Shown here in pieces: positions 3,338 to 45,658 of a stretch of DNA of 64,000 bases. Every line of letters begins with the position of its first letter. The stretch's first letter is position 1. The stretch covers positions 1 to 64,000 of the forward strand of contig CANQFC010000001.1 of the NCBI GenBank assembly GCA_947598155.1, in the 5' to 3' direction. The stretch is from an uncultured Clostridia bacterium (GTDB lineage: Bacteria; Bacillota; Clostridia; Oscillospirales; Acutalibacteraceae). The notes beneath the pieces are model-generated. The model was not told the origin of the DNA, ran no database searches, and worked only from the letters and a program-made list of their open reading frames with translations. The position numbers and the translations under genes were made by a program.

Positions 3338-4105
3338 ATGAATTTTCTTGTATCAGCCAATACAGATATCGGACTCACAAAGAATACGAATCAGGACTGC
3401 CTGTCAGTAAAAGTCATCAACACGGATCAAGGTCGCATGGCCTTTGCTTTGCTTTGCGACGGAATGGGTGGACTTGCCAAAGGCGAAGTTGCAAGCGCAT
3501 CTGTGATTCGTGCATTCAATCATTGGGTAAATGAACAGCTACCGGTTCTTTCCGCTGCGCCGATAGACGAGGAAATGATTAAGAACCAGTGGAATGACAT
3601 TGCCCAAAGTCAGAACAGAACGATACAGGAATATGGCGGAAAATTGGGAGTAAAATTAGGCACCACAATTGTTTTGCTGCTTATAACAGAGGAAAAATAC
3701 TTTATTATGAATGTGGGAGATTCTCGTGCATATGAGATAAGCGACAATCTTTATCAGCTTACTAAAGACCAAACGTTTGTGGCAAGAGAAGTGGAATTGG
3801 GCAATATGACTTCGGAACAGGCAGAAAACGATCCGCGCAGAAGCGTGCTTCTTCAGTGCGTTGGGGCGTCTGAAACCCTGTGTCCTGATTTTTTTGTCGG
3901 CAAATCAAAATCCAACGCAGCATACATGCTATGTTCGGATGGGTTCAGGCACGAAATAACTCCTCAAGAGATTTATGACAAAATGCAGCCGGACGTATTG
4001 CTTAACAATGCGACTATGAATCAGAACACCGTCGATTTGATTGAGCTGAACAAACAACGCAATGAGCGAGATAATATCTCGGTTGTGTTGATCAGAACGT
4101 TCTGA
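3338..4105 (+). CDS. PP2C-family Ser/Thr protein phosphatase
   Basis: At 255 residues this is the usual length of a bacterial PP2C (PppA/Stp/PrpC type). The expected motifs are present: the N-terminal DIGLTKNTNQD, LLCDGMGGLAKGE with the metal-binding Asp and Gly, MNVGDSRAYEI, MLCSDGFRHEI, and a terminal RDNISVVLI. It should remove phosphate from Ser/Thr in the cytoplasm and has no signal peptide or membrane segment. The ATG is 17 bases before the end of a GGAG-containing binding region. The kinase starts 17 bases downstream, so it is likely to reverse that kinase's phosphorylations. It is the first gene of operon A and has a paralogue at 19424. Confidence 0.95.
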   Translation: MNFLVSANTDIGLTKNTNQDCLSVKVINTDQGRMAFALLCDGMGGLAKGEVASASVIRAFNHWVNEQLPVLSAAPIDEEMIKNQWNDIAQSQNRTIQEYGGKLGVKLGTTIVLLLITEEKYFIMNVGDSRAYEISDNLYQLTKDQTFVAREVELGNMTSEQAENDPRRSVLLQCVGASETLCPDFFVGKSKSNAAYMLCSDGFRHEITPQEIYDKMQPDVLLNNATMNQNTVDLIELNKQRNERDNISVVLIRTF

Positions 4106-4122
4106 GAAGGGAGAGCCGGAAA

Positions 4123-5802
4123 GTGCTTGAAATAGGAACACTCGTTGATGGAAAATATAAAATTCTGAATAAAGTCGGACAAGGCGGTATGAGCGTCGTT
4201 TATCTTGCCATGAATGAAAAGGCGAATAAACAATGGGCAGTCAAGGAAGTTCGTAAGGATGGCGTTCTGGACTTTGAATCCGTGAAACAGGGGCTTGTAG
4301 CTGAAACCGACATTTTGAAAAAGCTCAGCCATCCGAATTTGCCGAGTATCGTCGATGTTATTGATACAGTTGATTCGTTCATCATTATTATGGATTATAT
4401 TCAGGGCAACTCGCTCAATAAGGCGCTGGAGGAGTATGGCGCTCAACCTCAGGAAAATGTCATTGAGTGGGCGAAACAGCTCTGCGATGTGCTCGGGTAT
4501 CTTCATTCGCGTGTTCCTCCCATTATTTACAGGGATATGAAGCCTGCCAACATTATGCTGAAGCCGGACGGCAATGTTACTTTGATCGACTTCGGAACGG
4601 CAAGAGAATTCAAAGAGAAGAATCTTGCGGATACGACCTGTCTCGGGACGGTAGGCTATGCGGCTCCCGAACAGTTCGGCGGTATGGGGCAGACAGATGC
4701 GCGTACCGATATCTATTGCCTTGGTGCAACGCTTTATCATCTTGTTACCGGTATGAATCCCTGCGAGCCGCCGTATGAGATCAAGCCCATTCGAGAAATT
4801 AATCCCGCGTTGTCCAGCGGTCTCGAAAGAATTATATTAAAATGCACACAGAGAGATCCGAACGATCGATACCAGTCGGCAGCCGAGCTGATGTATGCGC
4901 TGGAGCATTATGAAGAAATCGATGATATCTATAAGAAAAAGCAGAAGAAAAAGCTGATTGGATTTCTTGTAAGTTGCATGATGACTCTGGTTTTTGCCGC
5001 AACGTCTGTGTGGGGCTATGTTTCGGCGGAGGGCAAAAAAAGCGAAAACTATGACAATATCCTAAAAAGTGCCGAAAAAGCAGAGAACTATTATGACGCG
5101 ATTCTGACCGATCCCACAAGGACGGAAGCATATTTGCAACTAAACGAATTCCTAACCTCAGATTATATTCTTACAAAAGAAGAGGGCAAGGAGCTGCTTC
5201 AAATACAGGCAGGCCTTAGCCAGGTGAACGGCGCCGGATTCACGGAAAACATTGACGTCCTTGAAAAATTGAAGTCGGAGAATCATAACGGCTATTATGA
5301 CGTGTGCTTCATCACCGGATGGAATTTCCTCTCTTATTATGATACTGAAATGGATCGTGACAGGTATTCCAATGCCGCAAAATGGTTCAAGGAAGTAAAG
5401 GATGTCGATTCGGAAAATGGTTCTATTGCCGCTATCTTCTACGACATTTTTGAGTGTACGGACAAAATCAATCAGCTCCACGGCGGAAAAGTCATTCAGA
5501 CGCAGGATCTCAATGCACAAAGAACCAAACTTTGGTCAATGGTTCAGGAGTTGAAAACTAAGTCGAACGATTATGCCGACGACTTTAAGATCCAAACATG
5601 GATCGAAATAGACAAGCTGGTCAATAACAATATAAGCGATTTTCTCGAAGTTGCTTCCAAGAACGATCTCGTTTCTCTATTAAACCAGATTCGAAGCGAC
5701 ATTTCCAAGGTGCGCGGATCCAATCCTGAAATTGTGAAATTGATTGAACAACTTAAAATATCAACCGCAGATACAATCACAAGAATTGAAACTGCTAAGT
5801 AA
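4123..5802 (+). CDS. Membrane Ser/Thr protein kinase (PknB-like cytoplasmic domain)
   Basis: This is a 559-residue kinase. Residues 12-270 are a Hanks-type domain with P-loop GQGGMSVVY (19-27), catalytic Lys41, YRDMKPAN (catalytic Asp138), DFG at 156-158 and GYAAPEQF. The catalytic loop has YRD instead of HRD, a common variant. A lysine-rich stretch precedes one membrane helix (about 278-300). The outer part, about 255 residues, looks all-helical and has no PASTA domains, so the sensed signal is probably not muropeptide. GTG is chosen as start because AAGGGAG lies just upstream. Likely substrates are the TTVL-bearing island proteins. Confidence 0.94.
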   Translation: MLEIGTLVDGKYKILNKVGQGGMSVVYLAMNEKANKQWAVKEVRKDGVLDFESVKQGLVAETDILKKLSHPNLPSIVDVIDTVDSFIIIMDYIQGNSLNKALEEYGAQPQENVIEWAKQLCDVLGYLHSRVPPIIYRDMKPANIMLKPDGNVTLIDFGTAREFKEKNLADTTCLGTVGYAAPEQFGGMGQTDARTDIYCLGATLYHLVTGMNPCEPPYEIKPIREINPALSSGLERIILKCTQRDPNDRYQSAAELMYALEHYEEIDDIYKKKQKKKLIGFLVSCMMTLVFAATSVWGYVSAEGKKSENYDNILKSAEKAENYYDAILTDPTRTEAYLQLNEFLTSDYILTKEEGKELLQIQAGLSQVNGAGFTENIDVLEKLKSENHNGYYDVCFITGWNFLSYYDTEMDRDRYSNAAKWFKEVKDVDSENGSIAAIFYDIFECTDKINQLHGGKVIQTQDLNAQRTKLWSMVQELKTKSNDYADDFKIQTWIEIDKLVNNNISDFLEVASKNDLVSLLNQIRSDISKVRGSNPEIVKLIEQLKISTADTITRIETAK

Positions 5803-5816
5803 AGGGGGTTGCATTT

Positions 5817-6362: not shown

Positions 6363-6370
6363 GTGAAGAT

Positions 6371-6904
6371 ATGAACAGAAAAAAAGTTGATGTTATATGG
6401 CTTTGCATATCGATTATTTCCTATTTTTTGATGTCGGTTATGTTTCTGCTGATGCCGCTTGACAATATGGTGCCTTCGTTGAGGGACAGTAAAACGACCA
6501 TTGTTGTTGGTATCGGCTTTTGGGGCTTTATGATTATCGGAATCGCCGCACAAATTATTTTAGCGATGAGATGGAAAGCATGGTGCCGATTGCAGCGCAT
6601 CAGTGAGAGAAGAAGCACTGCACGAAAGCTTGGAGCGATCTCTTTTGGCGCAAACGTCATAGCCGTGATTGCAGATATCGGTGTGATCATATCGCTTTGC
6701 GGGCTGATTGTTTCGGTGATATTCACAGATGCCGCCGGCTATATGTGTTACGTATTTCTTGCGGCTTTCAGTTTTACATTTTGTATGCACTGTATTTTCA
6801 ACGGTAAAATTTACTACCACATTACCCATAATTACGACGGCAACGTTAAATACGCTCGTACCATTAAAATAAATGAACATCAGAAGATAGAAGGAGAGCA
6901 ATGA
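6371..6904 (+). CDS. Four-helix membrane protein of unknown function
   Basis: The 177-residue protein has about four hydrophobic segments (about 9-32, 39-61, 93-118, 121-143), a short basic loop after the second, and a charged C-terminus. I do not recognise the family. It starts 8 bases after the TTVL protein and its stop overlaps the start of the giant surface protein (ATGA at 6901-6904). Coupled translation and a role in handling or anchoring that protein are possible, but this is inference. Confidence 0.8.
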   Translation: MNRKKVDVIWLCISIISYFLMSVMFLLMPLDNMVPSLRDSKTTIVVGIGFWGFMIIGIAAQIILAMRWKAWCRLQRISERRSTARKLGAISFGANVIAVIADIGVIISLCGLIVSVIFTDAAGYMCYVFLAAFSFTFCMHCIFNGKIYYHITHNYDGNVKYARTIKINEHQKIEGEQ

Positions 6905-9900
6905 CAATGACAAGAATCAAGAATTCACTCGGATATCAAGCGCTGGCTTTATTTTTGAGCTTTATAATGCTGTTTGGATTGATTCCGATCAGCGGGATAT
7001 CGGCAAATGCTACTGAAAGTCAGTATGGAACTCTGTCTGGTATAACGGCAGACGGCACGTTGATGAATTCAACAGGAGCTAATGCCACCATTACATATTC
7101 AAATGGAGCCACTTTGGACTGGGCGGCACAAAATCCGGACATTGGCCGCTCGGTTGACGGTTGGTGGATCGGTGTAAAAATGACTGCTCCTGAGGATATG
7201 AAGACTGAGGAGAGCTTTGAAGGAGTAACGTTAAAATCCAAAGGAAGCAGCGGTGTCTGGTCAGAGCCGAAGCAATTTTGGGGTGCCAAAGACTCGGATA
7301 ACGCTGCTTCGGTTCATTTCATCGAACTGTGGGGAGCGATTGATGAAGAAAAATTGAATGACGCTCTTGCCTCTGGCAGTACGATCCAATATCAGTGGGA
7401 ATTTGACTGGAATGCCGATGACGCATATGAGCAGACCGCCACGCTCATTATTGATCCGCATAATATAGTATTAAAAAAATCCGATGCTACGGTATATCCG
7501 AAGGTTGCGGGACTGGGAACAGTCTCCTACTATAACGACGGTATTACGGTTTCAAACGAAAATGGAAGCTATGTTAATGCTGCATTCACATCGTCTGTTA
7601 CACTTTCATGGGTGGCCGCAAACATCGAAGCCGGAAGGACACAGGACGGCTGGTGGGCTGGGCTTAAAATAACAGCTCCCGACGCATTAAAAACCGAGGA
7701 CGATTTTTCCGATGTTACCTTCAAATCCAAAGGGTCATCCAACGAATGGTCGGATCCGAAGAATTTCTGGGATTACAAAGACTCTACCGATCCTGAGGGC
7801 CTTCAATTTTTGGGTCTGTGGGGACTTTTGACGGATGCGTACCTTAAAAGCGCAGCCACCGCTGACAGCAACATTGTGTATTCTTGGAAGTTTGACTGGA
7901 ATAAAGACGGCATATATGAGCAGCAAGTCAATCTGAGCATTGATCCGTCTAAAATTACGTTGAAAGATAGCGGGGGAAATCAGGTTTACCCGACCCTTGG
8001 AACGGTCGAACCCTACACGGGTGGTACCGTTTCCGGAGTTACCGGGAACATAAACGTCACGGTAGATCAAACAACGCTGAACTGGTCTCCAAAGCAGCCG
8101 GACATCGGAAGAGCCGAGGACGCATGGTGGGTCGGCATTAAGGTCACGGCGCCGGATTATGACAAGTCAGTTTTGCAGGACGCAAAATATCAACGGAAAT
8201 CCGCTTCAGATTGGTCTGGGGCTCTCTCGTTCTGGGATAAGAAGGATTCTGATGAAGGAGCCGATAGTCAGTTTATCGGCCTTTGGATGCCTTTGACGCC
8301 CGCCAAGCTCAGAGAAGCCAAGGCGGCAGAAAATAATATTGTCTTTGAATATCAGTTCGACTGGAATAATGACGGTAACTACGAGCAGCGGATTACAGTC
8401 ACCATTGTTCCCAGCGATAGAATCGTTTTGAATAAGATCGATCAGACAGGATTCGCCTTTGAAAATGAATCGCCGGTCGATCAATGGGCAGGACAGGAAT
8501 TTATAAACAAGGCAAGTGGCGGTCAGAGTTCCGGAAAGATTGAATACAGCATAATTTCGGGCAACGATATCGCAACGATCAACAAGGATACGGGAACAGT
8601 TAAGTTTTCTCAGGCCGGTAAAATCACCGTTAGAGCGACAAAATACGGTGACGATACCTACAACGACGCGACGGCGGAATACACGGTGACGGCTATCCGT
8701 TATCCTCAGACTGAATTTAAATTCGCAACGTCAAACCCCAGTGCAATTCCGTATGCTGAAGGTAAGATATTTGAGAACCCAGCAACCGGTGGGAGTGGAA
8801 GCGGTGAAGTAACGTATCGGATCATTTCCGGCGAAGAGTGTGCAAAAATTGATGCCAAAACCGGTACTGTCACTTTGCTAAAAGCCGGACAGATTACTGT
8901 CGAGGCGAAAAAAGCGGCCGATGCATTTTACAATGAGACCACGGTGACTTATACGTTGACCATCAATCGCGGTACGCAGGATGCGCTAGTATTTTCGACT
9001 CTTCCTAAAAACAAAGAGCTTGTATATCAGACCTCTCCGTATGAGAATGTCATCTCAGTCAGCGGAGGGAATGGAACAGGTGCTCAAGTGTTTTCTATTG
9101 TCGATGGGGAAGAGAATGCTACCATAACCCCTGATGGTAAGATCACGACCTTGCAGGCAGGAACATTTACGGTGCGTGTTGAAAAAGAGGGCGACGATTG
9201 CTATGCTGCCGCAACTCCTATCGAGGAGACGTTGACCGTTGTCAGGGCGGATCAGACGACCTTTGCTTTCACATATCCTACGCCCAATCCAGTAACTTAT
9301 AACGAAAACAATAACACGTTTGAGAACCCAGCAATTGGTGGCGAAAGCGCCGGAAAGGTTACATATGATATTCTCACACCCGGCGGAGACAGCATTGTTG
9401 ATATTGCGGATGATGGAAAGCTAACCATCAAGAGGGCCGGAGAGGTTACGATCAGCGCTACGAAAGCCGAAGATAATAAATACAAGTCGAAAACAATTCA
9501 ATATACGCTTACCATTCAAAAGACTGATCAGACCTTTACGTTTAAGGACGGAGATAATGTATCCAAGTATTACGGAATCAAGAGTTACATCAATGAAGTC
9601 GTTTATACCAAGAACCCTGATGCGGCTGATGGAACAGGATACGGCACCGGTGCGGTGACTTATGAGGTTTCCGGCGATTTAATCGGTGCGTCTGCCGGCG
9701 TCGACGGAACGATTACCTTTACCGATTCCGATTTGAAAGTCGGTACGATCACGGTAAAAGCGAAAAAAGAAGCTGATGAGTGCTATAACGAAGTCGAAAA
9801 GACATACACCCTGACGGTTGCTTATCTTCCGACTCCTGATAAGCCGTTCACATTGAGCGGAGAGACGAAAAACGACAGCGGCTGGTACACGGGAGATGTG

Positions 9901-15420: not shown

Positions 15421-15531
15421 AAATGTGTCTTATGACTTCAAACGCACGTAACAAAAGTCGTTGTGGCGGCAAATAATAAACAGCGTCTAAGTTGAATGGT
15501 GCGGAATTACAATATTACAGGGGTATCATTC

Positions 15532-17536: not shown

Positions 17537-17598
17537 TTTTTACATTTAAACATTGGCTTTTTACAAAGTTAAGACATCCCATGAAATTTGTGTATGAT
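17537..17598 (+). promoter_or_regulatory. LytTR-type repeat and promoter of operon B (site 2 of 4)
   Basis: TTTTTACA occurs at 17537-17544 and again at 17558-17565, exactly 21 bp apart and both perfect. A -10 like TATGAT at 17593-17598 is 35 bp after the start of the second copy. The site begins just after the stop of the histidine kinase gene and serves the second kinase, PP2C and CpaF. Confidence 0.78.
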
Positions 17599-19405: not shown

Positions 19406-19423
19406 AAAAGGAAGGTGAAACCG

Positions 19424-21451: not shown

Positions 21452-21514
21452 TTTTTACAATATAGTGTCCGTTTTTGACATTCCTGCAATTTATAAGGTA
21501 AAGGTTATTAAAAT
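21452..21514 (+). promoter_or_regulatory. LytTR-type repeat and promoter of operon C (site 3 of 4)
   Basis: TTTTTACA (21452-21459) and TTTTGACA (21473-21480) are 21 bp apart. TAAAAT at 21509-21514 lies 36 bp after the start of the second copy. The arrangement matches sites 1, 2 and 4. It starts seven bases after the cpaF stop and should drive the Tad structural genes. Confidence 0.76.
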
Positions 21515-24708: not shown

Positions 24709-24733
24709 AATCCTTAATCGGGAGCGTGAATTC

Positions 24734-26782: not shown

Positions 26783-26797
26783 TGTGAGGTGGCAAAA

Positions 26798-30782: not shown

Positions 30783-30798
30783 TTAGAGGTTGATGGAT

Positions 30799-36645: not shown

Positions 36646-36708
36646 TTTTTACAAAAAAGGTTTCGTTTTTGACATAGCTCCCTATTTTTCAAGTTTAAGT
36701 GATAGAAT
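36646..36708 (+). promoter_or_regulatory. LytTR-type repeat and promoter of operon D (site 4 of 4)
   Basis: TTTTTACA (36646-36653) and TTTTGACA (36667-36674) are 21 bp apart. TAGAAT at 36703-36708 starts 36 bp after the second copy. It begins 12 bases after the preceding stop and should drive the EsaB-EssC operon. This puts type VII genes under the same control as the Tad genes. Confidence 0.78.
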
Positions 36709-36745
36709 TAATCTCGGAAGTTCAGTTAAAAAGCAGGTGACTTTC

Positions 36746-36997
36746 ATGAACGAAAAAGCAATTGTGATTTTCAATATCGTCAATCGAAATTTTCAGATCG
36801 ATTTAGAGATTCCGTTAAATATATCCGCCAACGAATTGGTAACAGCTCTTAATGCTGCGTATGAGCTTGGCATAGATACGACAGACGTTAAGAACTGTTA
36901 TTTGAAAGCGGAGAATCCGATCGCATTATTAAAAGGAAACCGAATGCTTTCAGAATTTGGCGTTCGAAACGGTACCGTAATATATTTTACTGATTAA
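36746..36997 (+). CDS. EsaB/YukD-like ubiquitin-fold protein
   Basis: This 83-residue protein matches the size and pattern of YukD/EsaB, the small ubiquitin-like component of T7SSb. It has a beta-rich N-terminus with FQIDLEIPLNISANELV and a C-terminal LLKGNRMLSEFGVRNGT. YukD-type proteins bind or regulate the secretion core. ATG 36746 is preferred, with GCAGGTG seven bases upstream. The in-frame GTG at 36737 is too close to it. EssC begins 12 bases downstream, the classic pairing. Confidence 0.88.
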   Translation: MNEKAIVIFNIVNRNFQIDLEIPLNISANELVTALNAAYELGIDTTDVKNCYLKAENPIALLKGNRMLSEFGVRNGTVIYFTD

Positions 36998-37009: not shown

Positions 37010-40000
37010 ATGCAAAGTCGATACAAAGTCGTTATTTCAAATCGCAATCTCTACAAGGAAGTAGACCTTTTGCCGGATGCACCTGAGATCCGGGTAGGCA
37101 CGGAGACTGACTGTGAAGTACGTCTGCGCAAGGATCTTTTCTTCGAACAAATTGTTCTTGAATTTGTCCAACAGGGTGACCAGTGGTCAATCACTTGTTC
37201 TGACAATCTGTATATTGACGCCGGCGACGTCCGTAAACTCATGACCAAGGTGCTCAATCACGGCGATGTTTTTACCGTCAAATATCAGGGCTCTAACAAC
37301 GACGTCTTTACTGTTGAATTTTTAATTGATTTTGATAGTGACAGGCGTAAGTATGAAAGAGCAATTGATGTTTCCGGGTGTAGTGCTTTTTCTATCGGCA
37401 CTGGAAATAATTGCAATATTATTCTAAATAGTCGGTATGTTCAAAATGACTATTTAGAATTAACTTGGCAAAGCGGAAACTTTTCAGCGCGGATATTAAA
37501 TTCGACATATGGAATGTATCACAATGGTAGAAAAACTGACAAAGCAGCTATTATAGAAAATGGTGATTTCTTTTCTATCTCTGATTATTTTTTCTACTAT
37601 AAAAACGGTCACATATGGACAGAAATAAGACCGGACATTACAATCAACAATTTAAATTATGTTGATGAACCAGAACCAAATAGTTATCCGAAGTTCAATC
37701 GTAATACAAGAATAAAGACAATGATTGATGGAGGAAAGATAGAGATATTAGATCCTCCGCCGCCTTTGCAAAAGCCGAAAGGGAATATTATTTCTTCGCT
37801 CCTGCCATCATTAGTTATGGTTGTGGCAGGGCTTGCTATGTCTATGCTTTCGCCATATATGCTGATTTCAAGTGGCATAGGTGTTGTTACGGGAATAATT
37901 GGACTTATTCAAGGTAGCAAAGATTTTAAAACAATGTCCGCTGAACGCATTGTTAAGTATAATGCTTATATCGAAAATAAAAAGCTCGAAATAGAACAAT
38001 GTCGCGCCGATGAGCAAAAAACGATGGAAGAGATTTATTTATCGCCGGAGGTGGAACTAAATAATCTTGCTACATTTTCTCCACAACTTTTTGACAGAGA
38101 AAAAAACGATATTGATTTTTTAAGTGTTCGTTTAGGAACTGGTCCCGTTGAGGCCACAAGGGAAATCGACTACAAAAAACATGAGCAATTAGAAGTTGCA
38201 GATGAGCTTCAACATATTCCTGAGGCGATGTGCGATCAGTATAGATACTTGAGTAATGCTCCTATTGTGTGCAATCTAAAGAACTCAAATGCAGTCTGCA
38301 TTGTGGGTGAACCGGAATATAGGTTTGAAATTTTCAAAAATATTGTCATTGATATTTCTGTGAGACATTTTTATTCAGATGTCAAAATGTTCTTTATAGC
38401 AGAAGAGGAAAACAAAGAAAAATTACATTGGCTTAGATTTCTTCCGCATGCTTTTAATGATGATTTAGGTATAAGAAATTTAGTTTGCGATAGAGAAAGT
38501 AAAAACATTATCTTTGAGTATCTGTATAAAGTATTAACGCAAAGAAAGCAAAACAAGGAATATGATACTACAATTGTTGCATTATTCTTCGATGAGTGCG
38601 GCTTTAAATCGCATCCTGTTTCTAAATTTATTGAAGATGCAAAAGATTTAGGTATAACTTTCGTTTTCTTTGAAAACAGCATGTCTGATGTTCCACAGGG
38701 GTGCGACAGCATTATTGAAATTAAGGATGCTCAAAACGCTTGCCTAATTAATACTTTTGACAGAAGTAAAGCCAGTAATTTTATTTATTCCTGTATTCCG
38801 ACTACGCTAGCTGAAAGTGTTGTCAATATGTTGGCGCCAGTTTATACAGAAGAAATCTCGCTGGAAGGAACTTTGACAAAAAACATCTCTCTATTTGAGC
38901 TACTTAACATTATTGCTGTTGATGATATTGACTTGGGGTCTAATTGGAATTCTTCACAAGTTTTCAAATCCATGGCAGCCCCTCTCGGCGTTTCTAAATC
39001 GGGAATAGTGCATTTAGATCTTCATGACAAAGCACATGGACCTCACGGGTTAGTTGCCGGAACCACAGGTTCTGGTAAATCCGAAATATTGCAAACATAC
39101 ATTTTAACGATGTCGACTTTGTTCCACCCGTATGAAGTTTCCTTTGTTATTATTGACTTCAAAGGGGGCGGTATGGTTAATCAGTTTAAGGAATTACCAC
39201 ATCTATTGGGCGCAATAACAAACATTGATGGTAAGGAAATCAACCGTTCCCTAAAATCAATTAAGGCGGAATTACAAAAGCGTCAACGTCTTTTTGCTGA
39301 CGCTGATGTGAACCATATTGATAAATATATCAGAAAATTTAAAACTGGAGAAGTTAATATCCCGCTTCCGCATTTGATAATAATTGTGGATGAGTTCGCT
39401 GAACTTAAAGCAGAGCAGCCTGAATTTATGAAGGAGCTTATTTCAGCAGCACGTATAGGACGTAGTTTAGGTGTCCATCTGATTCTCGCGACTCAAAAAC
39501 CTTCAGGACAGGTCGATGACCAGATTTGGTCAAATTCTAAATTTAAGCTATGTTTAAAAGTGCAAAGTCAAGAAGATAGCAATGAGGTAATTAAATCTCC
39601 GTTGGCTGCTGAAATAAAGGAACCTGGCCGTGCATATTTGCAGGTTGGAAATAATGAAATATTTGAATTATTCCAATCGGCTTATAGCGGAGCTCCAGAA
39701 AGGGTGGAGAATGAGAATATTAAAGAATTCTCTATATATAGTTTCAACGATTCAGGGAAAAAGGTTCCGGTATTTGTTCAGAAAAAGAAAAAATCATCTG
39801 AGCAAAATCTAACACAATTGGAAGCAATAGTTAAATATGTAAATTCATACTGTTGCAAAAATAGCATAGAAAAACTTCCCAATATTTGTCTTCCGCCATT
39901 GCCTGATCTGCTGTTACAGCCGGATTCGTATGACGGAAATAAGGCTTATGTTGACATTGGCTTATATGATGATCCCGACAATCATATGCAAGCACCTACA

Positions 40001-41482
40001 TATGTAGATCTGCAGAATAAGAATACATTGATTATCGGTTCATCGCAGTTTGGCAAGACAAATTTACTACAATCTATTATCAAAAGTATTTCTATGCAAA
40101 CCAGCCCAAGAGAATCAGTATTTTACATTTTGGATTTTGGCTCAATGGTACTGAAGAATTTCGAGAAACTCAACCATGTTGGCGGGGTTGTCACTTCTTC
40201 TGAGGATGAGAAACTAAAAAATCTTTTCAAGTTGCTATTTGAAGAAATTAATGTCAGAAAGGAGAAACTGCTTACGGTTGGTGTCAGTTCGTTTTCCTCC
40301 TACATTGAGGCGGGATATACGGATTTGCCGCACATTTATTTAATCATTGATAATTTAACAGCTTTGATGGAACTCTACCTTTCTGACGATGATAGCTTGC
40401 TTGCCATTGCCAGAGAAGGTGTCTCTGTAGGAATTTCAATTATAATTGCTAATAATCAAACAGCCGGTATAGGATATAGGTATCTTTCAAATTTTGCAAA
40501 TAAAATTGTCCTATATTGCAATGATAGCGCAGAATATACTACCATCTTTGATCATGTTTCAATTAAGCCTGATGAGAAAGTTGGTCGATGTGTGCTGGAA
40601 ATAGATAAGAATATGCTTGAATGCCAAACTTATTTAGCTTTTGAAGGCGAAAAGGAAATTGAAAGAGTTCAGAATATGCGCGCTTTTATCGAAAAGGTAA
40701 ATAGCAAGTATACTGAATTACAAGCGAAACAAATTCCGTTTATTCCAAGCACGCTTGATGCTAAGACCATGGTGAAAGTGTATAATACAGCACCCAGTAA
40801 ATATTCTTTACCCATCGGTTTAGCATATGATGATGTCAAACCATTTGTATTAAATCTGAATGCCATAGGCATTCTGGGAATTACGGGCAAGGAAGGGTTT
40901 GGACACAAGAACTTTGTATCGCTAATTATAAAAAGCCTTATGTCGAAGTGCATGAGCAACGCAGAAATAGTAATTTTTGATGACGTAACAAGAAAGTATG
41001 CTGAATATAAAAATGACATCGCATATTACTCATTAGATGTAGCCTCGGTTTGTGGTGTTATCGAACAATGGCATACGGAACTGAAAAGAAGATATGATTA
41101 TTTGATGTTAAATAATTCGAGTAGCGCAGATGATAAATTGCTCGTTATGATTGTTCAAAATAATGATGTAGCAACTGCAATACAGTCTGACGCCACAGCA
41201 TTGGACAAGTTTAATGAGATTCTTGAACGCTATAAGGATATGGGAGTGTGTATCATTTTTGCAAATTATCCTAACACTTCTATTTCCTACGATGCGCCAG
41301 ATGCTATTCGAATAATTAAACAAAAGCAACATATTATGTATTTTGACGATTTGCAAAACCTCAAGTGTATTGATCCGCCATACGATGCAATTAGGCAATA
41401 TAAAAAACCGATATCGTTAGGCGATGGTTATTACGTCAATGACAATGATGTAATAAAACTGAAATTGATATTATCAGAATAG
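37010..41482 (+). CDS. essC: EssC-type FtsK/SpoIIIE ATPase of the type VII system
   Basis: At 1490 residues this has full EssC length and order. There are two N-terminal FHA-like domains (about 1-100, 108-205), two membrane helices (about 261-301) and three ATPase domains. D1 has an intact Walker A GTTGSGKS (684-691), DFKGGG and IIVDEFAEL. D2 has GSSQFGKT (1010-1017) and LIIDNLTAL. D3 has a degenerate P-loop GITGKEGFGHKN (about 1290-1301). It is the motor that selects and exports WXG100/LXG substrates. From about 37310 onward the DNA becomes clearly more AT-rich than the first 300 bases, suggesting a recombination joint inside the FHA region. Confidence 0.96.
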   Translation: MQSRYKVVISNRNLYKEVDLLPDAPEIRVGTETDCEVRLRKDLFFEQIVLEFVQQGDQWSITCSDNLYIDAGDVRKLMTKVLNHGDVFTVKYQGSNNDVFTVEFLIDFDSDRRKYERAIDVSGCSAFSIGTGNNCNIILNSRYVQNDYLELTWQSGNFSARILNSTYGMYHNGRKTDKAAIIENGDFFSISDYFFYYKNGHIWTEIRPDITINNLNYVDEPEPNSYPKFNRNTRIKTMIDGGKIEILDPPPPLQKPKGNIISSLLPSLVMVVAGLAMSMLSPYMLISSGIGVVTGIIGLIQGSKDFKTMSAERIVKYNAYIENKKLEIEQCRADEQKTMEEIYLSPEVELNNLATFSPQLFDREKNDIDFLSVRLGTGPVEATREIDYKKHEQLEVADELQHIPEAMCDQYRYLSNAPIVCNLKNSNAVCIVGEPEYRFEIFKNIVIDISVRHFYSDVKMFFIAEEENKEKLHWLRFLPHAFNDDLGIRNLVCDRESKNIIFEYLYKVLTQRKQNKEYDTTIVALFFDECGFKSHPVSKFIEDAKDLGITFVFFENSMSDVPQGCDSIIEIKDAQNACLINTFDRSKASNFIYSCIPTTLAESVVNMLAPVYTEEISLEGTLTKNISLFELLNIIAVDDIDLGSNWNSSQVFKSMAAPLGVSKSGIVHLDLHDKAHGPHGLVAGTTGSGKSEILQTYILTMSTLFHPYEVSFVIIDFKGGGMVNQFKELPHLLGAITNIDGKEINRSLKSIKAELQKRQRLFADADVNHIDKYIRKFKTGEVNIPLPHLIIIVDEFAELKAEQPEFMKELISAARIGRSLGVHLILATQKPSGQVDDQIWSNSKFKLCLKVQSQEDSNEVIKSPLAAEIKEPGRAYLQVGNNEIFELFQSAYSGAPERVENENIKEFSIYSFNDSGKKVPVFVQKKKKSSEQNLTQLEAIVKYVNSYCCKNSIEKLPNICLPPLPDLLLQPDSYDGNKAYVDIGLYDDPDNHMQAPTYVDLQNKNTLIIGSSQFGKTNLLQSIIKSISMQTSPRESVFYILDFGSMVLKNFEKLNHVGGVVTSSEDEKLKNLFKLLFEEINVRKEKLLTVGVSSFSSYIEAGYTDLPHIYLIIDNLTALMELYLSDDDSLLAIAREGVSVGISIIIANNQTAGIGYRYLSNFANKIVLYCNDSAEYTTIFDHVSIKPDEKVGRCVLEIDKNMLECQTYLAFEGEKEIERVQNMRAFIEKVNSKYTELQAKQIPFIPSTLDAKTMVKVYNTAPSKYSLPIGLAYDDVKPFVLNLNAIGILGITGKEGFGHKNFVSLIIKSLMSKCMSNAEIVIFDDVTRKYAEYKNDIAYYSLDVASVCGVIEQWHTELKRRYDYLMLNNSSSADDKLLVMIVQNNDVATAIQSDATALDKFNEILERYKDMGVCIIFANYPNTSISYDAPDAIRIIKQKQHIMYFDDLQNLKCIDPPYDAIRQYKKPISLGDGYYVNDNDVIKLKLILSE

Positions 41483-41498: not shown

Positions 41499-41930
41499 AT
41501 GGCCAAATCTCTTGATGATTATAAGTCGGAAAAAAGAAGTTTGGAAAATCAAATAGCCAGTCGAAGAAGTCAAAACGCAAGAATTTCAGGAGAAATTTCA
41601 CGTCTTGAAGCTGCTTATGATAAATTAGGTAAAATCAAGCGCAGTAATCCTGACAATGCGGAAAAAGTAAGAGATAATACGAAACTTTCCAAAGTTGCTG
41701 GCAACGTAAAGTGGAGAGGCAAGTATAAAGATCAGTTTGATAATGCCATGAAGGATAGAGCTACGCCAGCAGCGAAAGATTTTTTTAATAGTATTGACGC
41801 AATGCAAGACGAAATCGGAAGGGCTTTAGACAGAAAACGTGGCGAGTATAATACGGGCTCGGCAATTCTAAATGGTCTTAATCGAGCGTGGAATAATGTA
41901 GCGGGCATCATCCGGAACTGGGTGAATTAA
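41499..41930 (+). CDS. Small helical LXG partner (YwqH/DUF5082-like)
   Basis: The 143-residue protein is nearly all helical, with a long coiled coil (about 1-60), a WRG motif at about residue 72 (NVKWRGKYKDQF) and a second helix pair. This is the form of LXG-associated Lap1-type proteins, of which YwqH/DUF5082 is one family. The family assignment is by pattern only. Such proteins bind the LXG domain and form the targeting complex for EssC. It lies 16 bases after EssC and before the second partner and the LXG gene. Confidence 0.75.
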   Translation: MAKSLDDYKSEKRSLENQIASRRSQNARISGEISRLEAAYDKLGKIKRSNPDNAEKVRDNTKLSKVAGNVKWRGKYKDQFDNAMKDRATPAAKDFFNSIDAMQDEIGRALDRKRGEYNTGSAILNGLNRAWNNVAGIIRNWVN

Positions 41931-41944: not shown

Positions 41945-42223
41945 ATGGCAGAATTAAAAGCAAAACTAGATGATATAGACGCCTTAATAGGCTATATCAA
42001 AACTAATAAAGACGCCTTTGACTTATCCGTTTCCTCTGTAAAAGAACCGTCAAAATGTAAAGGGATAATGGTGTCGGAATATATCAAAAGAATTAAAAAA
42101 ATATCAGACCTTTTAGGCAAATACAAGCAATTGTTAGATAAGGATGTATTAGACATTAATATTTCAAAAGAAACCATCCGAGAGATGGATGAACAAATGG
42201 AAAATCTTTCAAAAATCGAGTAA
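41945..42223 (+). CDS. Second small helical LXG partner (Lap2-like)
   Basis: The 92-residue protein is predicted to form a helical hairpin (LDDIDALIGYIKTNKDAFDL, then SEYIKRIKKISDLLGKYKQL). It has no WXG motif. Position and size match the Lap2-type partner (DUF5344/YwqI-like) in LXG operons. Sequence similarity is not strong enough to name a family. ATG has TTGGAGGTG upstream. The LXG gene follows by 32 bases. Confidence 0.72.
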   Translation: MAELKAKLDDIDALIGYIKTNKDAFDLSVSSVKEPSKCKGIMVSEYIKRIKKISDLLGKYKQLLDKDVLDINISKETIREMDEQMENLSKIE

Positions 42224-42255: not shown

Positions 42256-44619
42256 TTGTCATATACAAAAATCTATTATGATGACATTTGGGAGGCCGCA
42301 TCAAAGAGCAGTGAAAAATGCAGAGAGTGGCTGTCTAACCTTCAGGAATTGTCCAATAGTTTTGAAAAATTTGTAAATACGGAAAGCTTCAAAGGGCAAG
42401 CTGCGACTAATATGAAAAATTACCTAAATCAAGTGCACGGTATACTAATAATGATTCTCGGATCTGTTGTGCAGTCATATAGCGCACTTGCCATAGACTA
42501 TTACGGTGGCTATACACGTATTGTTGATTCGGGTGATAACAAAAAATATGGTTTGAGGTATACTACAATTGTAAGTAGCGAAGTTTGCGAGACTGGTTCA
42601 ATACAAAAAACATTAAACAATATTTTAAGATCCGCCGAGCAAGTTGTAGCTGATGCAAACAGTGTGAAAAATAGCATTTCTGATTTGGTATCAATCGCAT
42701 CTTACCCGAAAACGTATAATCTATATGAACAAATTAAGGCAGCTAAATCAAAAGCGCAAACAGTACATAATAACGCTATTGCGTATGAAGCTTCCAGAGC
42801 AAACGATTTTAATGAAATAGATAGATTAATTTCGCAAGCTTTATCAATTATTAATGCGCAGTTAGGGGAAACACGCACACCGGTTGTAAAATATGAAAAT
42901 GGCGCAATCGGGTTAATGTGCGATATAGATCAAATACGAGTAGATTTAGAGGCAACCTCTGAAAAAGTTTCGTCTATTACAGAAAATGAAAATTTTGAAA
43001 AAGACGCAGAACTTGTTCTTAATAGAGATGCTCTTATTCAAGAAGAGGAAGAGGCATCTCGAGAATGGGCCCAATGGGTCGCTGTTGGAATTGCCGTAGT
43101 AGGTGGGATTGTATTAACGGTTGTAACTGCTGGTGCTGCTGCGCCGGGCACCTGCATGATTGTTGGTGCTGCGGTTGGAGCTACTACGGCCGCAGCAAGC
43201 GGAATCGCAGATAACTATGTTAAAAATGGGACATTTTTTGAGGGGTTGGATATAAAAGAATTTGGCAAAGATGTACTTGTTGGTGCAGTCGGTGGTGCTG
43301 TAACTGGATATCTCGGGGCTGTTTCAACAGGCTCGGCAATAAAACAACCCATTGAAAAAGGGATGTCTGCGCTCGCAGATACTTTGGTGGAAGAAGGCTC
43401 CAAAGGTGTAGCAGGTGCAATTTGGGAAATGGGAGAGACAATTTATGAAGTTGGTGAAGCAATCGTTGCCGGGAAACCAGGCGACAAAATCATTTCTGTA
43501 CTAGACGCTGGAGTTGATGAAATCGAAGGTGAAGTTGCAGATACATTAAAAAATATGTCAACCAAAGGCGCAAAAAGCTTTGTTGGAGGTACTATTGCAG
43601 GTAAATTTGATATTGACACTTCTGATAAGAGCGTAATTAAGAAAATTGGAGAAAAGGCAGCAGAGGGTGCCGGAAAAGGCCTTGCGGGCGGCACAGTAAA
43701 TACACTATGGGATGTCGGCGAGGCAGTACTGGATGATGACAGTTCAACGACAGTAACATCTGCTCTAAAACAGGGCATTAAAGAAACTGTCCAAGACGTA
43801 ACCAGTTCTACAGCAGGTGCTGTTGTTTCTGAGGGCGTTTTTTCCGGTGTTGATGGTATTGACAACAAAGCGGGGAAAGTAGTAGCCGAAACTATAAAAG
43901 ATACTGTTACAGATACGGCAGAAAAAGTTGCCAGTGGCGTTACCGGCAGAACAATGGATTACGTTTATGGTGACGAAAAAGACGCTGGCAAAATCCTTGG
44001 AGACATATGGGAAGAAGATTTGGAGAGCGGAAGGACAATTGCAGAAGCTGCTGGAAGTTCTGTAGGTGAGCATATTGTTGAAGAGGTGCATAAGGATGAC
44101 AAGTTTTATAACGATCTAAAGAAAATTGATAAAGATGGTGATGGCAAGATAGAAGTTGTTCAGTTTGATGATTATGCCGTCACTAAGCAGGACTACGACG
44201 CGGCTGTTAAAAACGCAGGTAAGGGGGCATATAAGGATAAGACAGTGCAAGACATTCTTGGATTACCAAAAGATGCAGATATTAGTTCTGGCAAAAGTCG
44301 TACAGTTTCAATTGATATGACGGAAAAATATTCTTCAAGCAGAAAAACAACAGACACTGTCACTGTCGGTGGCAAGTACACATTTAGTAAAAGCTATTTT
44401 GAGTCCTCGGTAAATGTTGCTGGCACTAAGGGGTATGGAGGAAAAACTGCACAAGAAATCCTCGGGATACCTAATGATGTTGATTTATCGGAAGACAATA
44501 TAACATATAAGCGCGTCGATAATGATAAAATTGGTCAGGGTAAGGAAGTTGAACTTCACAGGGATTACAGCACAAACGCAACCAAAATTCATATTTCAAG
44601 CGTGAAACACAAATCATGA
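42256..44619 (+). CDS. LXG-domain effector with unassigned C-terminus
   Basis: The 787-residue protein has an N-terminal LXG domain (about 1-205; SFKGQAATNMKNYLNQVHG). A glycine/alanine-rich hydrophobic stretch (about 270-340) and a long low-complexity central region follow. The tail has an EF-hand-like loop DKDGDGKIEVVQ from residue 625. It then has two related units of about 40 residues (KTVQDILGLPKDADI and KTAQEILGIPNDVDL). No nuclease, NADase, lipid II phosphatase or ADP-ribosyltransferase motif is visible, so the activity is unknown. TTG start with AGGAGGAGGG upstream. No obvious immunity gene is next to it unless it is the one at 44664. Confidence 0.87.
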   Translation: MSYTKIYYDDIWEAASKSSEKCREWLSNLQELSNSFEKFVNTESFKGQAATNMKNYLNQVHGILIMILGSVVQSYSALAIDYYGGYTRIVDSGDNKKYGLRYTTIVSSEVCETGSIQKTLNNILRSAEQVVADANSVKNSISDLVSIASYPKTYNLYEQIKAAKSKAQTVHNNAIAYEASRANDFNEIDRLISQALSIINAQLGETRTPVVKYENGAIGLMCDIDQIRVDLEATSEKVSSITENENFEKDAELVLNRDALIQEEEEASREWAQWVAVGIAVVGGIVLTVVTAGAAAPGTCMIVGAAVGATTAAASGIADNYVKNGTFFEGLDIKEFGKDVLVGAVGGAVTGYLGAVSTGSAIKQPIEKGMSALADTLVEEGSKGVAGAIWEMGETIYEVGEAIVAGKPGDKIISVLDAGVDEIEGEVADTLKNMSTKGAKSFVGGTIAGKFDIDTSDKSVIKKIGEKAAEGAGKGLAGGTVNTLWDVGEAVLDDDSSTTVTSALKQGIKETVQDVTSSTAGAVVSEGVFSGVDGIDNKAGKVVAETIKDTVTDTAEKVASGVTGRTMDYVYGDEKDAGKILGDIWEEDLESGRTIAEAAGSSVGEHIVEEVHKDDKFYNDLKKIDKDGDGKIEVVQFDDYAVTKQDYDAAVKNAGKGAYKDKTVQDILGLPKDADISSGKSRTVSIDMTEKYSSSRKTTDTVTVGGKYTFSKSYFESSVNVAGTKGYGGKTAQEILGIPNDVDLSEDNITYKRVDNDKIGQGKEVELHRDYSTNATKIHISSVKHKS

Positions 44620-44663
44620 CTTGAAAGGGAATATTAACAACAAATTTAAAAGGAGAAGTTATC

Positions 44664-44981
44664 ATGGAAAACAAGAAAATCTTACCGTTAGGAAGCGTTG
44701 TCTATCTTAAGGAAGGAAATAAGAAGGTTTTAATTGTTGCAAGAGGTCTTGTTGCAAAAAACGGAGATGGTCATATTTACTTTGATTACGGTGGGGTTCC
44801 TTATCCGGAAGGACTTGTAGACGATAAGATGGCTTATTTCCAGCAGGATGCAATCAATAAAGTTGTTTTTGAAGGCTACACTGATTTGGATGATGAAGCA
44901 ACCATTGAGAAAATCAATTTGTTTGTTAAAAATCATCCTGAAATACCCAGGGGTGATGTTAAACAGCTTTTGAACAAATAA
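44664..44981 (+). CDS. DUF4176-like type VII accessory protein
   Basis: The 105-residue soluble protein begins LPLGSVVYLKEGNKKVLIVAR and has YFDYGGVPYPEG, the pattern I recall for DUF4176, a small family often beside LXG genes in T7SSb loci. Its role is not firmly known to me. Effector accessory or immunity functions are both possible. It lies 44 bases after the LXG gene with a clear AAAGGAG site and probably ends operon D. Confidence 0.78.
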   Translation: MENKKILPLGSVVYLKEGNKKVLIVARGLVAKNGDGHIYFDYGGVPYPEGLVDDKMAYFQQDAINKVVFEGYTDLDDEATIEKINLFVKNHPEIPRGDVKQLLNK

Positions 44982-45361
44982 TTTATTTGCGGATCAGTTT
45001 AAATTAATCATGATCAGGTGAGATGAGTGGAGCTAAAGCAAATAGATGTTTTTTAGTTGTAATAGCTGTAAAAGCTATTGATTTAAAGAGTTTGACTCTG
45101 CTTACTGATGAACCTTTAAACCAAGTATGATGAGTTGTTTGTCTTGATTATGCAGACCAACATGAGTTTTGCATAAATCCTTATTGGTAGATAGCGTTCT
45201 CTGTTTGGTTTAACATAGGCTATAACGAAAATGAATCAAGCAGAAGTTTCGCTTTCTATATCTCTTGAGTGATTTTCGGCTTCGGCCATAGCCAGAATCA
45301 CTTGTGTTTTTGGTATACGCATTTTGTTTATGGCTGATTGAATTTGAGAGGAGGTGAAAAA
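44982..45361 (+). other. Spacer with hairpins between operon D and WXG100 gene
   Basis: No gene is seen in these 380 bases. Two hairpins are visible. AATAGCT-GTAAA-AGCTATT (45061-45079) may end operon D. AGTGATT...AATCACT (45268-45302) encloses a GGC-TTCG-GCC tetraloop and lies in the leader of the WXG100 gene. A weak TATAAC (45221-45226) has no good -35. None of the four LytTR-type repeat pairs occurs here. Confidence 0.5.
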
Positions 45362-45658
45362 ATGGCTGGAAATCAAATCAGAATGACCCCTGAATCTATG
45401 CGTGCAAGAGCGGGCGAATATACTAATCAAGCTGAAAACATTCAGCAGATTATCAACAACCTTGATCGCTTGCTTCGGCAGCTTCAGCAGGAATGGGAAG
45501 GCGATGCTAGTAGAGCGTATGCAGAAAAATTCACTCAACTTAGACCTGGGTTTGTTAATGCCAAAAATCTTGTTGATGAAATTTCCGTTGCACTCAAAAA
45601 AGCCGCTCAGATTGTTGAAGATACTGACAAAAACATTGCAGGTCAGTTCAGAGGTTAA
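45362..45658 (+). CDS. WXG100 protein (EsxA-like)
   Basis: The 98-residue protein forms two helices around a WEG turn (QQEWEGDASRAYAEKF), the defining WXG100 layout. A C-terminal ISVALKKAAQIVEDTDKNIA helix carries a D/E-rich end resembling the YxxxD/E-type export signal region, though the Tyr is not present. It is a likely secreted substrate or structural partner of EssC. ATG 45362 with an excellent GAGGAGG site is the start. It is transcribed apart from essC and followed by its own terminator. Confidence 0.95.
   Translation: MAGNQIRMTPESMRARAGEYTNQAENIQQIINNLDRLLRQLQQEWEGDASRAYAEKFTQLRPGFVNAKNLVDEISVALKKAAQIVEDTDKNIAGQFRG

What the first reader, a model, noticed from the sequence alone, without database searches (positions are those of the whole stretch)
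3338..45658. Combined Tad pilus, type VII-like secretion and Ser/Thr phospho-signalling locus
One contiguous set of genes, all on the plus strand, carries a full Gram-positive Tad set (CpaF, TadZ, TadB, TadC, Flp1, prepilin peptidase, pseudopilins). It also carries EsaB-EssC with an LXG effector, its helical partners and a WXG100 protein. With these are two kinase/PP2C pairs, FHA proteins, and a giant surface protein. Tad and T7SSb are normally described as separate machines. Shared promoters and shared phospho-motifs argue they work as one programmed apparatus, perhaps contact-dependent delivery with a pilus.
Basis: partly seen in the sequence, partly recalled or inferred. Interest (0 to 1): 0.86.

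Follow-up and report, generated by a model that had tools for sequence, protein, structure and literature searches.

The report
Tad pilus nested inside T7SS locus
In an uncultured Clostridia-type bacterium, a complete pilus gene set sits inside a type VII protein-secretion gene cluster, and the four main gene blocks begin with the same regulator-type DNA site, which suggests, but does not prove, that the two surface machines are switched on together.

Summary
Window 2881-45658 holds a complete Gram-positive Tad set, an EssC/YukD/WXG100/LXG type VII set, two kinase/PP2C pairs, two DUF6382-FHA proteins and a 2825-aa surface protein. It is not T7SSb: EssB was not found in the genome. It resembles T7SSe/f/j of Garrett et al. 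2024, who already report Tad genes beside T7SSg/h and call the link unclear.
New here: (1) a Tad block lies between the giant-protein gene and J2-V-YukD-EssC. The Tad-J1-J2-V-YukD-EssC junction recurs in two named genomes, probably in a third split over two contigs. The four Tads form one clade (100/100) while EssC does not (AU p 1.9e-5): EssC-effector cassettes were exchanged beside a stable Tad. (2) Four transcription units start with a 21-bp tandem repeat, TTTT(T/G)ACA-N13-TTTT(T/G)ACA, that fits LytTR operators; the locus encodes a LytTR regulator. (3) The J-PP2C-STK-TM-giant cassette also occurs with Tad alone or T7SS alone.
Against generality: in the family sample EssC and CpaF co-occur at chance (3 of 170, expected 2.1), and two same-genus genomes carry one half each. 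Co-regulation with shared phospho-control is likeliest; one physical apparatus is not shown.

The parts
2881..2931 (+). Operator-like tandem repeat upstream of PP2C_1 (three 8-mers, 22 and 21 bp apart), followed after 28 nt by TAGAAT
   Evidence: each pair scores 15 of 16
3338..4105 (+). PP2C_1 (TsxF-like phosphatase)
   Evidence: PF13672 1.4e-10; DGMGG and other motifs present
4123..5802 (+). STK_1 (TsxD-like membrane Ser/Thr kinase)
   Evidence: PF00069 5.5e-48; one hydrophobic segment
5817..6362 (+). Single-TM protein with two ETTVL motifs and one GTTVL (TsxH/K-like)
6371..6904 (+). Four-TM protein ('memb')
   Evidence: homologues in Tad and T7SS loci
6901..15378 (+). Giant surface protein, 2825 aa (TsxI-like), mosaic of Tad-type and T7SS-type segments
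   Evidence: no Pfam family over its cut-off
15496..16242 (+). LytTR response regulator
   Evidence: PF00072 5e-17, PF04397 2e-15
16233..17534 (+). GHKL histidine kinase (AgrC-like by recall)
   Evidence: PF14501 4e-18; seven hydrophobic segments
17537..17565 (+). Operator-like repeat before STK_2
   Evidence: 16 of 16, spacing 21, then N27-TATGAT
17636..19405 (+). STK_2 kinase
   Evidence: PF00069 1e-38
19415..20194 (+). PP2C_2 phosphatase
   Evidence: PF13672 3e-13
20207..21445 (+). CpaF/TadA ATPase
   Evidence: PF00437 8e-60
21452..21480 (+). Operator-like repeat before TadZ
   Evidence: 16 of 16, spacing 21, then N28-TAAAAT
21583..22638 (+). TadZ
   Evidence: PF21194 2e-43
22656..23510 (+). 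TadB
   Evidence: T2SSF 0.006, below cut-off; homologues in the Tad contexts
23515..24387 (+). TadC
   Evidence: T2SSF 2e-9
24431..24649 (+). Flp pilin
   Evidence: PF16982 1.7e-14; counterparts in G629, G609, G611
24686..25411 (+). Prepilin peptidase
   Evidence: PF01478 9e-12
25430..26782 (+). WG-repeat protein, found in most Tad contexts fetched
   Evidence: PF14903 2.5e-19
26789..28318 (+). Pseudopilin-like protein with a Listeria-Bacteroides repeat domain
   Evidence: PF09479 2e-12; one N-terminal hydrophobic segment
28333..29046 (+). Hypothetical protein, also in the fused loci
   Evidence: 22% identity in G629 and G609
29043..30782 (+). DUF5702/TadG-like protein
   Evidence: PF18960 2e-12
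30790..32754 (+). TadE-like pseudopilin with InlB-type repeats
   Evidence: PF18998 3e-23; PF07811 0.003, below cut-off
32776..34458 (+). J1: DUF6382 - linker with two ETTVL - FHA
   Evidence: PF19909 3e-19, PF00498 4e-15
34501..35565 (+). J2: DUF6382-FHA (TsxJ-like)
   Evidence: PF00498 6e-18, PF19909 6e-7
35584..36633 (+). V: ParA/TadZ-like ATPase (TsfV-like)
   Evidence: PF13614 1e-12; tree with TadZ
36646..36674 (+). Operator-like repeat before YukD-EssC
   Evidence: 16 of 16, spacing 21, then N28-TAGAAT
36737..36997 (+). YukD/EsaB-like protein (TsxB)
   Evidence: PF08817 8e-10
37010..41482 (+). EssC ATPase (TsxC)
   Evidence: TIGR03928 over cut-off
41499..41930 (+). Small helical LXG partner (YwqH-like)
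   Evidence: PF16888 3e-6, below its cut-off
41945..42223 (+). Small helical LXG partner (DUF5344-like)
   Evidence: PF17279 0.005, below its cut-off
42256..44619 (+). LXG-domain protein, presumed secreted; no known toxin domain detected
   Evidence: PF04740 4e-13, the only Pfam match
44664..44981 (+). DUF4176 protein
   Evidence: PF13780 6.5e-25
45338..45658 (+). WXG100 protein (TsxA)
   Evidence: PF06013 3e-21; TIGR03930 2e-22

Best explanation
The locus is two machines placed under one control system. A Tad (Flp) pilus and an EssB-less T7SS (e/f/j-like) have been fused so that one set of regulatory parts serves both. Step 1 (inferred): the locus-encoded GHKL kinase/LytTR regulator senses an unknown signal and binds the 21-bp tandem repeats upstream of four units (PP2C_1..giant; STK_2-PP2C_2-CpaF; TadZ..pilins-J1-J2-V; YukD-EssC-LXG), so pilus, secretion ATPase and effector are made together. 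Step 2 (inferred): the membrane kinases phosphorylate the ETTVL threonines in J1 and the single-TM protein; the FHA domains of J1/J2 bind them in a GarA/OdhI-like switch that licenses assembly or activity, and the PP2Cs reset it. Step 3 (speculative): the pilus, whose pseudopilins carry adhesin-type repeats, holds a neighbour or surface while EssC exports the LXG protein. Shown: gene content, recurrent junction, single-clade Tad with exchanged EssC, the repeat, motif specificity. Inferred: binding, phosphorylation, joint deployment.
For: Same junction (Tad..TadE2-J1-J2-V-YukD-EssC) in G629 (Ruminococcus sp. RGIG2051) and G609 (Clostridiales RUI438), CpaF-EssC start distances 16.8-17.0 kb as in the window; probable in G611, split over two contigs. 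Tad genes of the four: one clade 100/100. EssC of the fused loci not one clade, AU p 1.9e-5 for window+G629 and 6e-42 for window+G629+G609; J2 and V reject the EssC grouping, p 2.5e-6 and 5e-86. Repeat: 5 plus-strand matches (>=15 of 16, spacing 20-22) at 4 unit starts within 48.3 kb, against 1 in 433 kb of the same genome; 0 of 241 own-genome ORF upstreams reach 14. Spacing matches LytTR operators (9-bp repeats, 12-bp spacer; PMC2766830 and PMC6193735, passages). Of the four fused or probably fused loci, the regulator pair was seen in the window and G629 only; of 69 YukD upstreams in named loci only G629's reaches 14. (E/D)TTVL: 20 of 60 J1-labelled, 5 of 33 TM, 4 of 64 STK_1, 1 of 71 V proteins, 0 in the other families.
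Against: No genome-level excess of EssC with CpaF in the family (3 of 170, expected 2.1, p 0.36); weak excess in the class sample (20 of 33, expected 14, p 0.02, not corrected for relatedness). Only 2 of 61 named EssC loci with at least 8 kb upstream show Tad genes. G001 and G003 carry one half each. The repeat was noticed by eye in window gaps, then scored, so its statistics are post hoc; there is also one antisense match inside a coding region (27185). G629 reaches 15 and 14 at two units but only 13 and 10 at the other two; G609 and the visible parts of G611 lack the repeat and the regulator. Another promoter-like site (2992-3020) also lies before PP2C_1. A second, unlinked signalling cassette in the genome (L043/L053) could serve one of the machines. 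No expression or binding data.
Confidence: 0.6

Rival explanations
1. The two systems are neighbours by accident: recombination through the homologous cassettes carried by both Tad and T7SS loci joined them, and they work separately.
For: Both kinds of locus carry J-PP2C-STK-TM-giant cassettes; the window's giant gene is a mosaic; its PP2C/STK are Tad-type; no family-level co-occurrence excess; the fused state is rare (2 of 61).
Against: The junction persists across diverged genomes (CpaF 81-89%) although EssC was exchanged; the same operator-like repeat begins the Tad and EssC units in the window and, more weakly, in G629; Tad-T7SS adjacency also exists with a different Tad type and an EssC whose match lacks the FHA part (PMC11217815).
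Confidence: 0.25
2. One physical apparatus: the Tad basal machinery and the EssC complex assemble together, with the paired TadZ-like ATPases and J proteins as joint scaffold.
For: Tight interleaving J1-J2-V-YukD-EssC after the Tad genes; V is related to TadZ; DUF6382 is mainly a Tad-locus domain in the class sample (122 of 127 DUF6382 genomes have CpaF, expected 54).
Against: Each half occurs alone in relatives; J2-V-YukD-EssC stand without Tad genes in the flank of most named loci. No interaction data.
Confidence: 0.1
3. Assembly artefact joining two loci.
For: The genome is a 33-contig assembly.
Against: The same order at the same junction in G629 (127.9-kb contig) and G609 (127.9-kb contig); the window lies at the start of a 444.8-kb contig.
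Confidence: 0.02

Closest known systems
T7SSe / T7SSj (Garrett, Higginson and Palmer 2024, PMC11217815; abstract, sections on identification and on T7SSd-j, and discussion read)
   Same: EssC with FHA-type N-terminus, YukD, WXG100, membrane kinase (D), PPM phosphatase (F), giant protein with signal and C-terminal TM (I), DUF6382-FHA (J), short TM protein (H/K)
   Different: Here there are two J proteins and a TadZ-like ATPase (V, described for T7SSf), and a whole Tad operon with a second kinase/PP2C pair and a LytTR two-component pair lies inside the cluster. The sections read mention no Tad genes for e or j; supplements were not seen.
T7SSf (same paper)
   Same: TadZ-like ATPase V next to J, YukD, EssC; PPM phosphatase
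   Different: T7SSf has no kinase and no other Tad genes, as described there; here both are present.
T7SSg / T7SSh (same paper)
   Same: Tad genes beside the T7SS genes
   Different: Those EssC proteins lack FHA domains, and this cassette is not among their listed components. In G289-type loci found here (EssC match without the FHA part) the adjacent CpaF is a 489-494-aa type, 29-30% identical to the window's, so the association looks separate.
Gram-positive Tad loci with J-PP2C-STK-TM-memb-giant (G001, G229, G242, G524, G445; this work)
   Same: Same core Tad genes and a homologous signalling/surface cassette directly downstream
   Different: No EssC near the locus or, at E 1e-40, in the genome; gene order TadZ-CpaF rather than CpaF-TadZ; no STK_2/PP2C_2 match in the fetched stretch of these five.
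Myxococcus Kil (Tad) pilus with needleless T3SS* (PMC12075869, abstract and outline seen)
   Same: A Tad pilus whose function depends on a second, secretion-type complex; pilus-tip variable domains
   Different: Gram-negative, T3SS-like partner, shown by experiment; here the partner would be a T7SS and nothing is tested.
GarA/OdhI FHA phospho-switch (PMC5448819, passages seen)
   Same: ETT-type motif in a flexible segment outside an FHA domain, Ser/Thr kinase
   Different: J1 has a DUF6382 domain in front and two tandem motifs; no phosphorylation shown.

Membership tests
T7SSb | EssC with C-terminal ATPase domains, TIGR03928 | tested here: met
   1131.9 bits against cut-off 778.4
T7SSb | EssB/YukC pseudokinase | tested here: not met
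   PF10140 0 matches in own genome, control B. subtilis rings
T7SSb | EsaA and EssA | tested here: inconclusive
   No match among the 30 proteins of 3338-46641 scanned with Pfam; genome not searched with their models
T7SSe/T7SSj | Kinase D, phosphatase F, giant I, DUF6382-FHA J, YukD B, WXG100 A in one cluster | tested here: met
   giant assigned by size, end segments and place
T7SSe | Second WXG100 (A2) plus both H and K | tested here: inconclusive
   One WXG100 over cut-off; one single-TM protein and one four-TM protein
T7SSe/T7SSj | pThr-binding residues conserved in the EssC FHA domains | tested here: inconclusive
   J1/J2 keep an SRxH pattern; the EssC FHA regions do not show it by eye
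T7SSe/T7SSj | EssC groups with TseC/TsjC in a tree | not tested
   Their reference sequences were not fetched
T7SSf | TadZ-like ATPase V with receiver domain beside J and EssC | tested here: inconclusive
   ParA/MinD-type ATPase that aligns with TadZ; the PF21194 receiver model did not match V
T7SSf | No kinase in the cluster | tested here: not met
   Two kinases
T7SSg/T7SSh | EssC without FHA domains | tested here: not met
   FHA match 128-190, 4e-7
T7SSg/T7SSh | Tad genes adjacent | tested here: met
Tad pilus (Gram-positive) | CpaF, TadB, TadC, TadZ, Flp pilin, prepilin peptidase, TadE-type pseudopilins | tested here: met
   TadB and TadE models below cut-off
LytTR regulon | Direct repeats of about 9 bp with 11-13 bp between, just upstream of promoters, and a LytTR regulator | tested here: met
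   spacing from PMC6193735 and PMC2766830 passages
LytTR regulon | Binding of this regulator to the repeats | not testable with these tools
   needs EMSA or footprinting

The most novel reading that the evidence does not exclude
A Gram-positive counterpart of the Myxococcus Kil/T3SS* arrangement: a Tad pilus with adhesin-bearing tip pilins grips a neighbour, and the same quorum-type LytTR circuit and phosphothreonine switch gate a T7SS that delivers LXG effectors on contact.
Probability: 0.25. Interest if true: 0.9.

Novelty: new variant of a known kind. Interest (0 to 1): 0.72.

Why it matters
Garrett et al. (2024) left open whether Tad genes beside T7SS genes mean common regulation or coincidence. 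This locus offers a concrete, testable answer: one operator-like sequence before both machines, a regulator in the locus, and evolutionary evidence that the Tad stays while EssC is swapped. It also shows that parts described as T7SS components (J, D, F, H/K, I) occur with Tad pili in genomes where no EssC was found, so they look like a portable phospho-signalling/surface cassette rather than T7SS core.

Tried and rejected
DUF6382 as an EssB-like pseudokinase: suggested by eye; hhalign of the J alignment against the kinases gave probability 0.14%, Pfam scans of 54 J proteins gave no kinase or YukC match among the 25 of 54 families shown, and in the PDB profile search (60 of 65 rows shown) the good matches covered the FHA part, with one row at E 0.13 elsewhere. 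Not supported.

Clean insertion of a Tad block into an intact T7SS locus: too simple. The window's PP2C_1/STK_1 are Tad-type, the giant is mosaic, and EssC/effectors come with an L124-like T7SS while J2/V go with G629.

AgrA consensus (ACAGTTNAG, recalled) pairs: none found in the window. The repeat found is different in sequence; published LytTR repeats vary in sequence but keep spacing.

Mobile-element origin of the main locus: the right flank is the S10-spc ribosomal operon; no integrase among the 40 window proteins scanned, which is not a systematic search. The second cassette elsewhere does lie beside an integrase.

Genome-wide co-occurrence as proof of coupling: fails in the family sample.

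Full report
OBSERVATION. Inside 3338-45658 gaps between genes are 44 nt or less except for five of 101-356 nt: giant-RR 117, HK-STK_2 101, CpaF-TadZ 137, V-YukD 103, DUF4176-WXG100 356. The strongest promoter-like site of the 2600-22000 scan is at 2992-3020 (11 of 12), and a clear terminator lies at 50898-50923; scans were run on 2600-22000 and 33000-51000 only, and promoter counts overall are little above shuffles. The locus is flanked on the right by the S10-spc ribosomal operon.

WHAT KIND OF T7SS. EssC passes the T7SS EssC model, but EssB was not found in the genome, so T7SSb is the wrong name. The set kinase, PPM phosphatase, short TM protein, giant protein, DUF6382-FHA, YukD, EssC, WXG100 is that of T7SSe/T7SSj, and V is described for T7SSf, in Garrett et al. 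2024 (PMC11217815; abstract, results sections on identification and on T7SSd-j, and discussion read; supplements not seen). The same paper reports Tad genes beside T7SSg and T7SSh and says it is unclear whether this is common regulation or coincidence. Searches (15 of 17 listed), 85, 86, 87 in an open-licence PMC library listed no other paper whose title or abstract start points to a Tad-T7SS link; subscription papers and preprints are not held.

Among 40 genomes (own and relatives), EssC at E below 1e-100 is in 4 (G000, G003, G025, G037) and CpaF at E below 1e-100 in 2 (G000, G001). G003 (same genus) has the T7SS cluster with the cassette and no Tad-type CpaF; G001 (same genus) has Tad plus the cassette and no EssC. 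In 170 family genomes EssC (E 1e-40) is in 13, CpaF (E 1e-30) in 28, both in 3; expected 2.1, p 0.36. Of these 3 only the window has the two on one contig; in G550 and G520 they lie on different contigs. In a class sample of 393 genomes: EssC 33, CpaF 167, both 20 (expected 14.0, p 0.02, relatedness ignored); only the window has the two within 25 kb among listed matches, G289 and G335 at 26 kb (only 150 CpaF matches were listed, so these are lower bounds). So there is no general rule.

DUF6382 IS MAINLY A TAD DOMAIN. In the same sample 127 genomes have DUF6382; 122 of them have CpaF (expected 54, p 6e-56), and in at least 88 it lies within 15 kb of CpaF, 85 of 89 such pairs on the same strand. 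It lies within 15 kb of EssC in 4 genomes (places copied by hand from the outputs).

A PORTABLE CASSETTE. J-PP2C-STK-TM-(memb)-giant occurs with Tad and no EssC nearby (complete in G001, G229, G242, G445; G524 to the edge of the stretch fetched; partly or at contig ends in others), with T7SS and no Tad in the stretch fetched (G003, G541, G045, G321 and a number of named loci), with both (window, G629), and with neither: at own-genome C1 310.5-321.7 kb an FHA protein with a trypsin-like protease domain in place of DUF6382, then PP2C-STK-TM-memb-giant, beside a phage-type integrase. At E 1e-40 no EssC was found in G229 or G242, nor in G524 or G445; G001 has only FtsK-level matches. Trees place the window's STK_1 and PP2C_1 among Tad-locus copies; the giant protein matches Tad giants best at residues 1 to about 1300 and Tad or stand-alone giants at the C-terminus, and T7SS giants best at about 1500-2400. 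So no single history fits the whole cassette.

THE FUSED STATE RECURS. Of 61 with at least 8 kb upstream of EssC, 56 have J2 and V upstream, 24 have the giant directly before J2, and 2 have Tad genes: L127 (G609) and L147 (G629). G629 is collinear with the window from PP2C_1 to EssC, Flp included, apart from one extra small ORF before STK_2, with different genes downstream; G609 is collinear from STK_2 to EssC, with no cassette match upstream. In both, CpaF and EssC start 16.9-17.0 kb apart, against 16.8 kb in the window. G611 has giant-STK_2-PP2C_2-CpaF-TadZ-TadB-TadC-Flp-peptidase on an 8.9-kb contig and J2-V-YukD-EssC-LXG on another; fusion is likely, not shown. CpaF was sought in 50 of the 80 genomes: 32 have it; several are of other types and on other contigs.

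TAD STAYS, EssC CHANGES. CpaF+TadB+TadC of the window, G629, G609 and G611 form one clade, 100/100, with G001 next (100/99) (32 rows). EssC of the window groups with L124 and L125 (82% identical, effector-side genes 71-95%), which have no Tad at that junction, and not with G629 or G609 (AU p 1.9e-5 and 6e-42), while J2 and V reject the window-L124-L125 grouping (p 2.5e-6 and 5e-86) (27 rows chosen from 62, groups named after seeing the data). So recombination fell between V and YukD, and an EssC-effector cassette was exchanged beside a stable Tad-J2-V block. Direction is not settled.

SHARED OPERATOR. Reading the gaps showed TTTT(T/G)ACA twice, 21 bp apart, before STK_2, TadZ and YukD (16 of 16 by construction of the motif). 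A scan then found a fourth, with a third copy, before PP2C_1 (15 of 16). A -10-like TAnnAT follows 28 nt further at three of the four sites (27 nt, TATGAT, before STK_2), and a similar hexamer 28 nt after the repeats before YukD and TadZ of G629. The 48.3-kb locus has 5 plus-strand and 1 antisense match; 433 kb of other own-genome DNA has 1. The upstream regions of 241 own-genome ORFs never reach 14. G629, which also has the regulator pair, scores 15 before YukD and 14 before TadZ, but 13 and 10 at the other two units; G609, and G611 where visible, have neither pair nor sites. Of 69 YukD upstreams in the named loci only G629's reaches 14. Among non-fused Tads one (G520) also reaches 14 before TadZ, and G459 and G633 reach 13, a score that 8 of 241 background upstreams also reach, so the site may or may not be older in Tad loci. 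LytTR regulators bind 9-bp repeats about 12 bp apart, just ahead of the -35, with low sequence but high spacing conservation (PMC2766830, PMC6193735; passages). The assignment of this regulator to these repeats is inference, and the motif statistics are post hoc.

PHOSPHO-SWITCH. (E/D)TTVL occurs in 20 of 60 J1-labelled FHA proteins (the label is by best match and includes the protease-FHA protein), 5 of 33 short-TM, 4 of 64 STK_1 and 1 of 71 V proteins, and in none of the other families collected; the reversed motif occurs 0 times. In the J1-labelled proteins the sites lie 105-128 residues from the C-terminus, just ahead of the FHA domain. Most J1-labelled copies (40 of 60) and all 70 J2 copies lack this exact motif. 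In the whole own genome the DNA pattern (glutamate form) has 8 matches against 4 for the reversed control; 7 are in frame, all 7 in J1, the TM protein and the FHA protein of the second cassette. GarA carries its ETTS phosphorylation motif in a flexible segment outside the FHA domain (PMC5448819, passages). Both kinases keep the glycine loop, Lys, (H/Y)RDxKPxN and DFG, and both PP2Cs keep DGMGG.

INDEPENDENT PRECEDENTS. In G289, G232, G335, G187 and G408 an EssC whose match to the window begins after its FHA region lies beside a 489-494-aa CpaF, 29-30% identical to the window's (neighbours checked by Pfam in G289 only). This fits T7SSg/h, so Tad and T7SS were probably joined at least twice. In Myxococcus a Tad pilus works with a needleless T3SS in contact killing (PMC12075869, abstract). 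The window's pseudopilin-like proteins carry Listeria-Bacteroides and InlB-type repeats, as one would expect of adhesive tips; this is analogy only.

VERDICT. A real, recurrent, probably co-regulated Tad-T7SS fusion in Clostridia; a new variant of a known kind, with a testable regulatory logic. A single physical machine is not shown.

Noticed in passing
[quoted passage not shown]
   Followed up: partly
window 50346-50822: Free-standing prepilin-peptidase N-terminal (A24_N, PF06750) domain of 158 aa after the locus; the Tad peptidase at 24686 matched only the A24 catalytic domain.
   Followed up: no
window 42256-44619: The LXG protein aligns over almost its full length with those of L124 and L125 (74-82%), unlike polymorphic LXG toxins; no toxin domain was recognised and its role as a toxin is unproven.
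   Followed up: partly
window 26789-32754: Tad pseudopilin-like proteins carry Listeria-Bacteroides (PF09479) and InlB-type (PF18998) repeats, possible adhesive pilus tips.
   Followed up: no
L109, L118, L221: Weaker 21-bp-type repeats lie upstream of TadZ in some non-fused Tad loci (G520 14 of 16, G459 and G633 13 of 16); LytTR control of Tad may be older than the fusion.
   Followed up: partly
L049-L052, L065-L068: Very similar Tad-cassette architecture in G001, G229 and G242 (G242 is outside the window's family) with CpaF 75-82% identical to the window's, which may mean horizontal transfer of whole Tad-cassette loci.
   Followed up: no
window 45790-50275: Run of zinc-ribbon, WG-like and other small proteins after WXG100; ZnR1 is conserved (57-66%) behind the EssC cassette in L124 and L125.
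   Followed up: no
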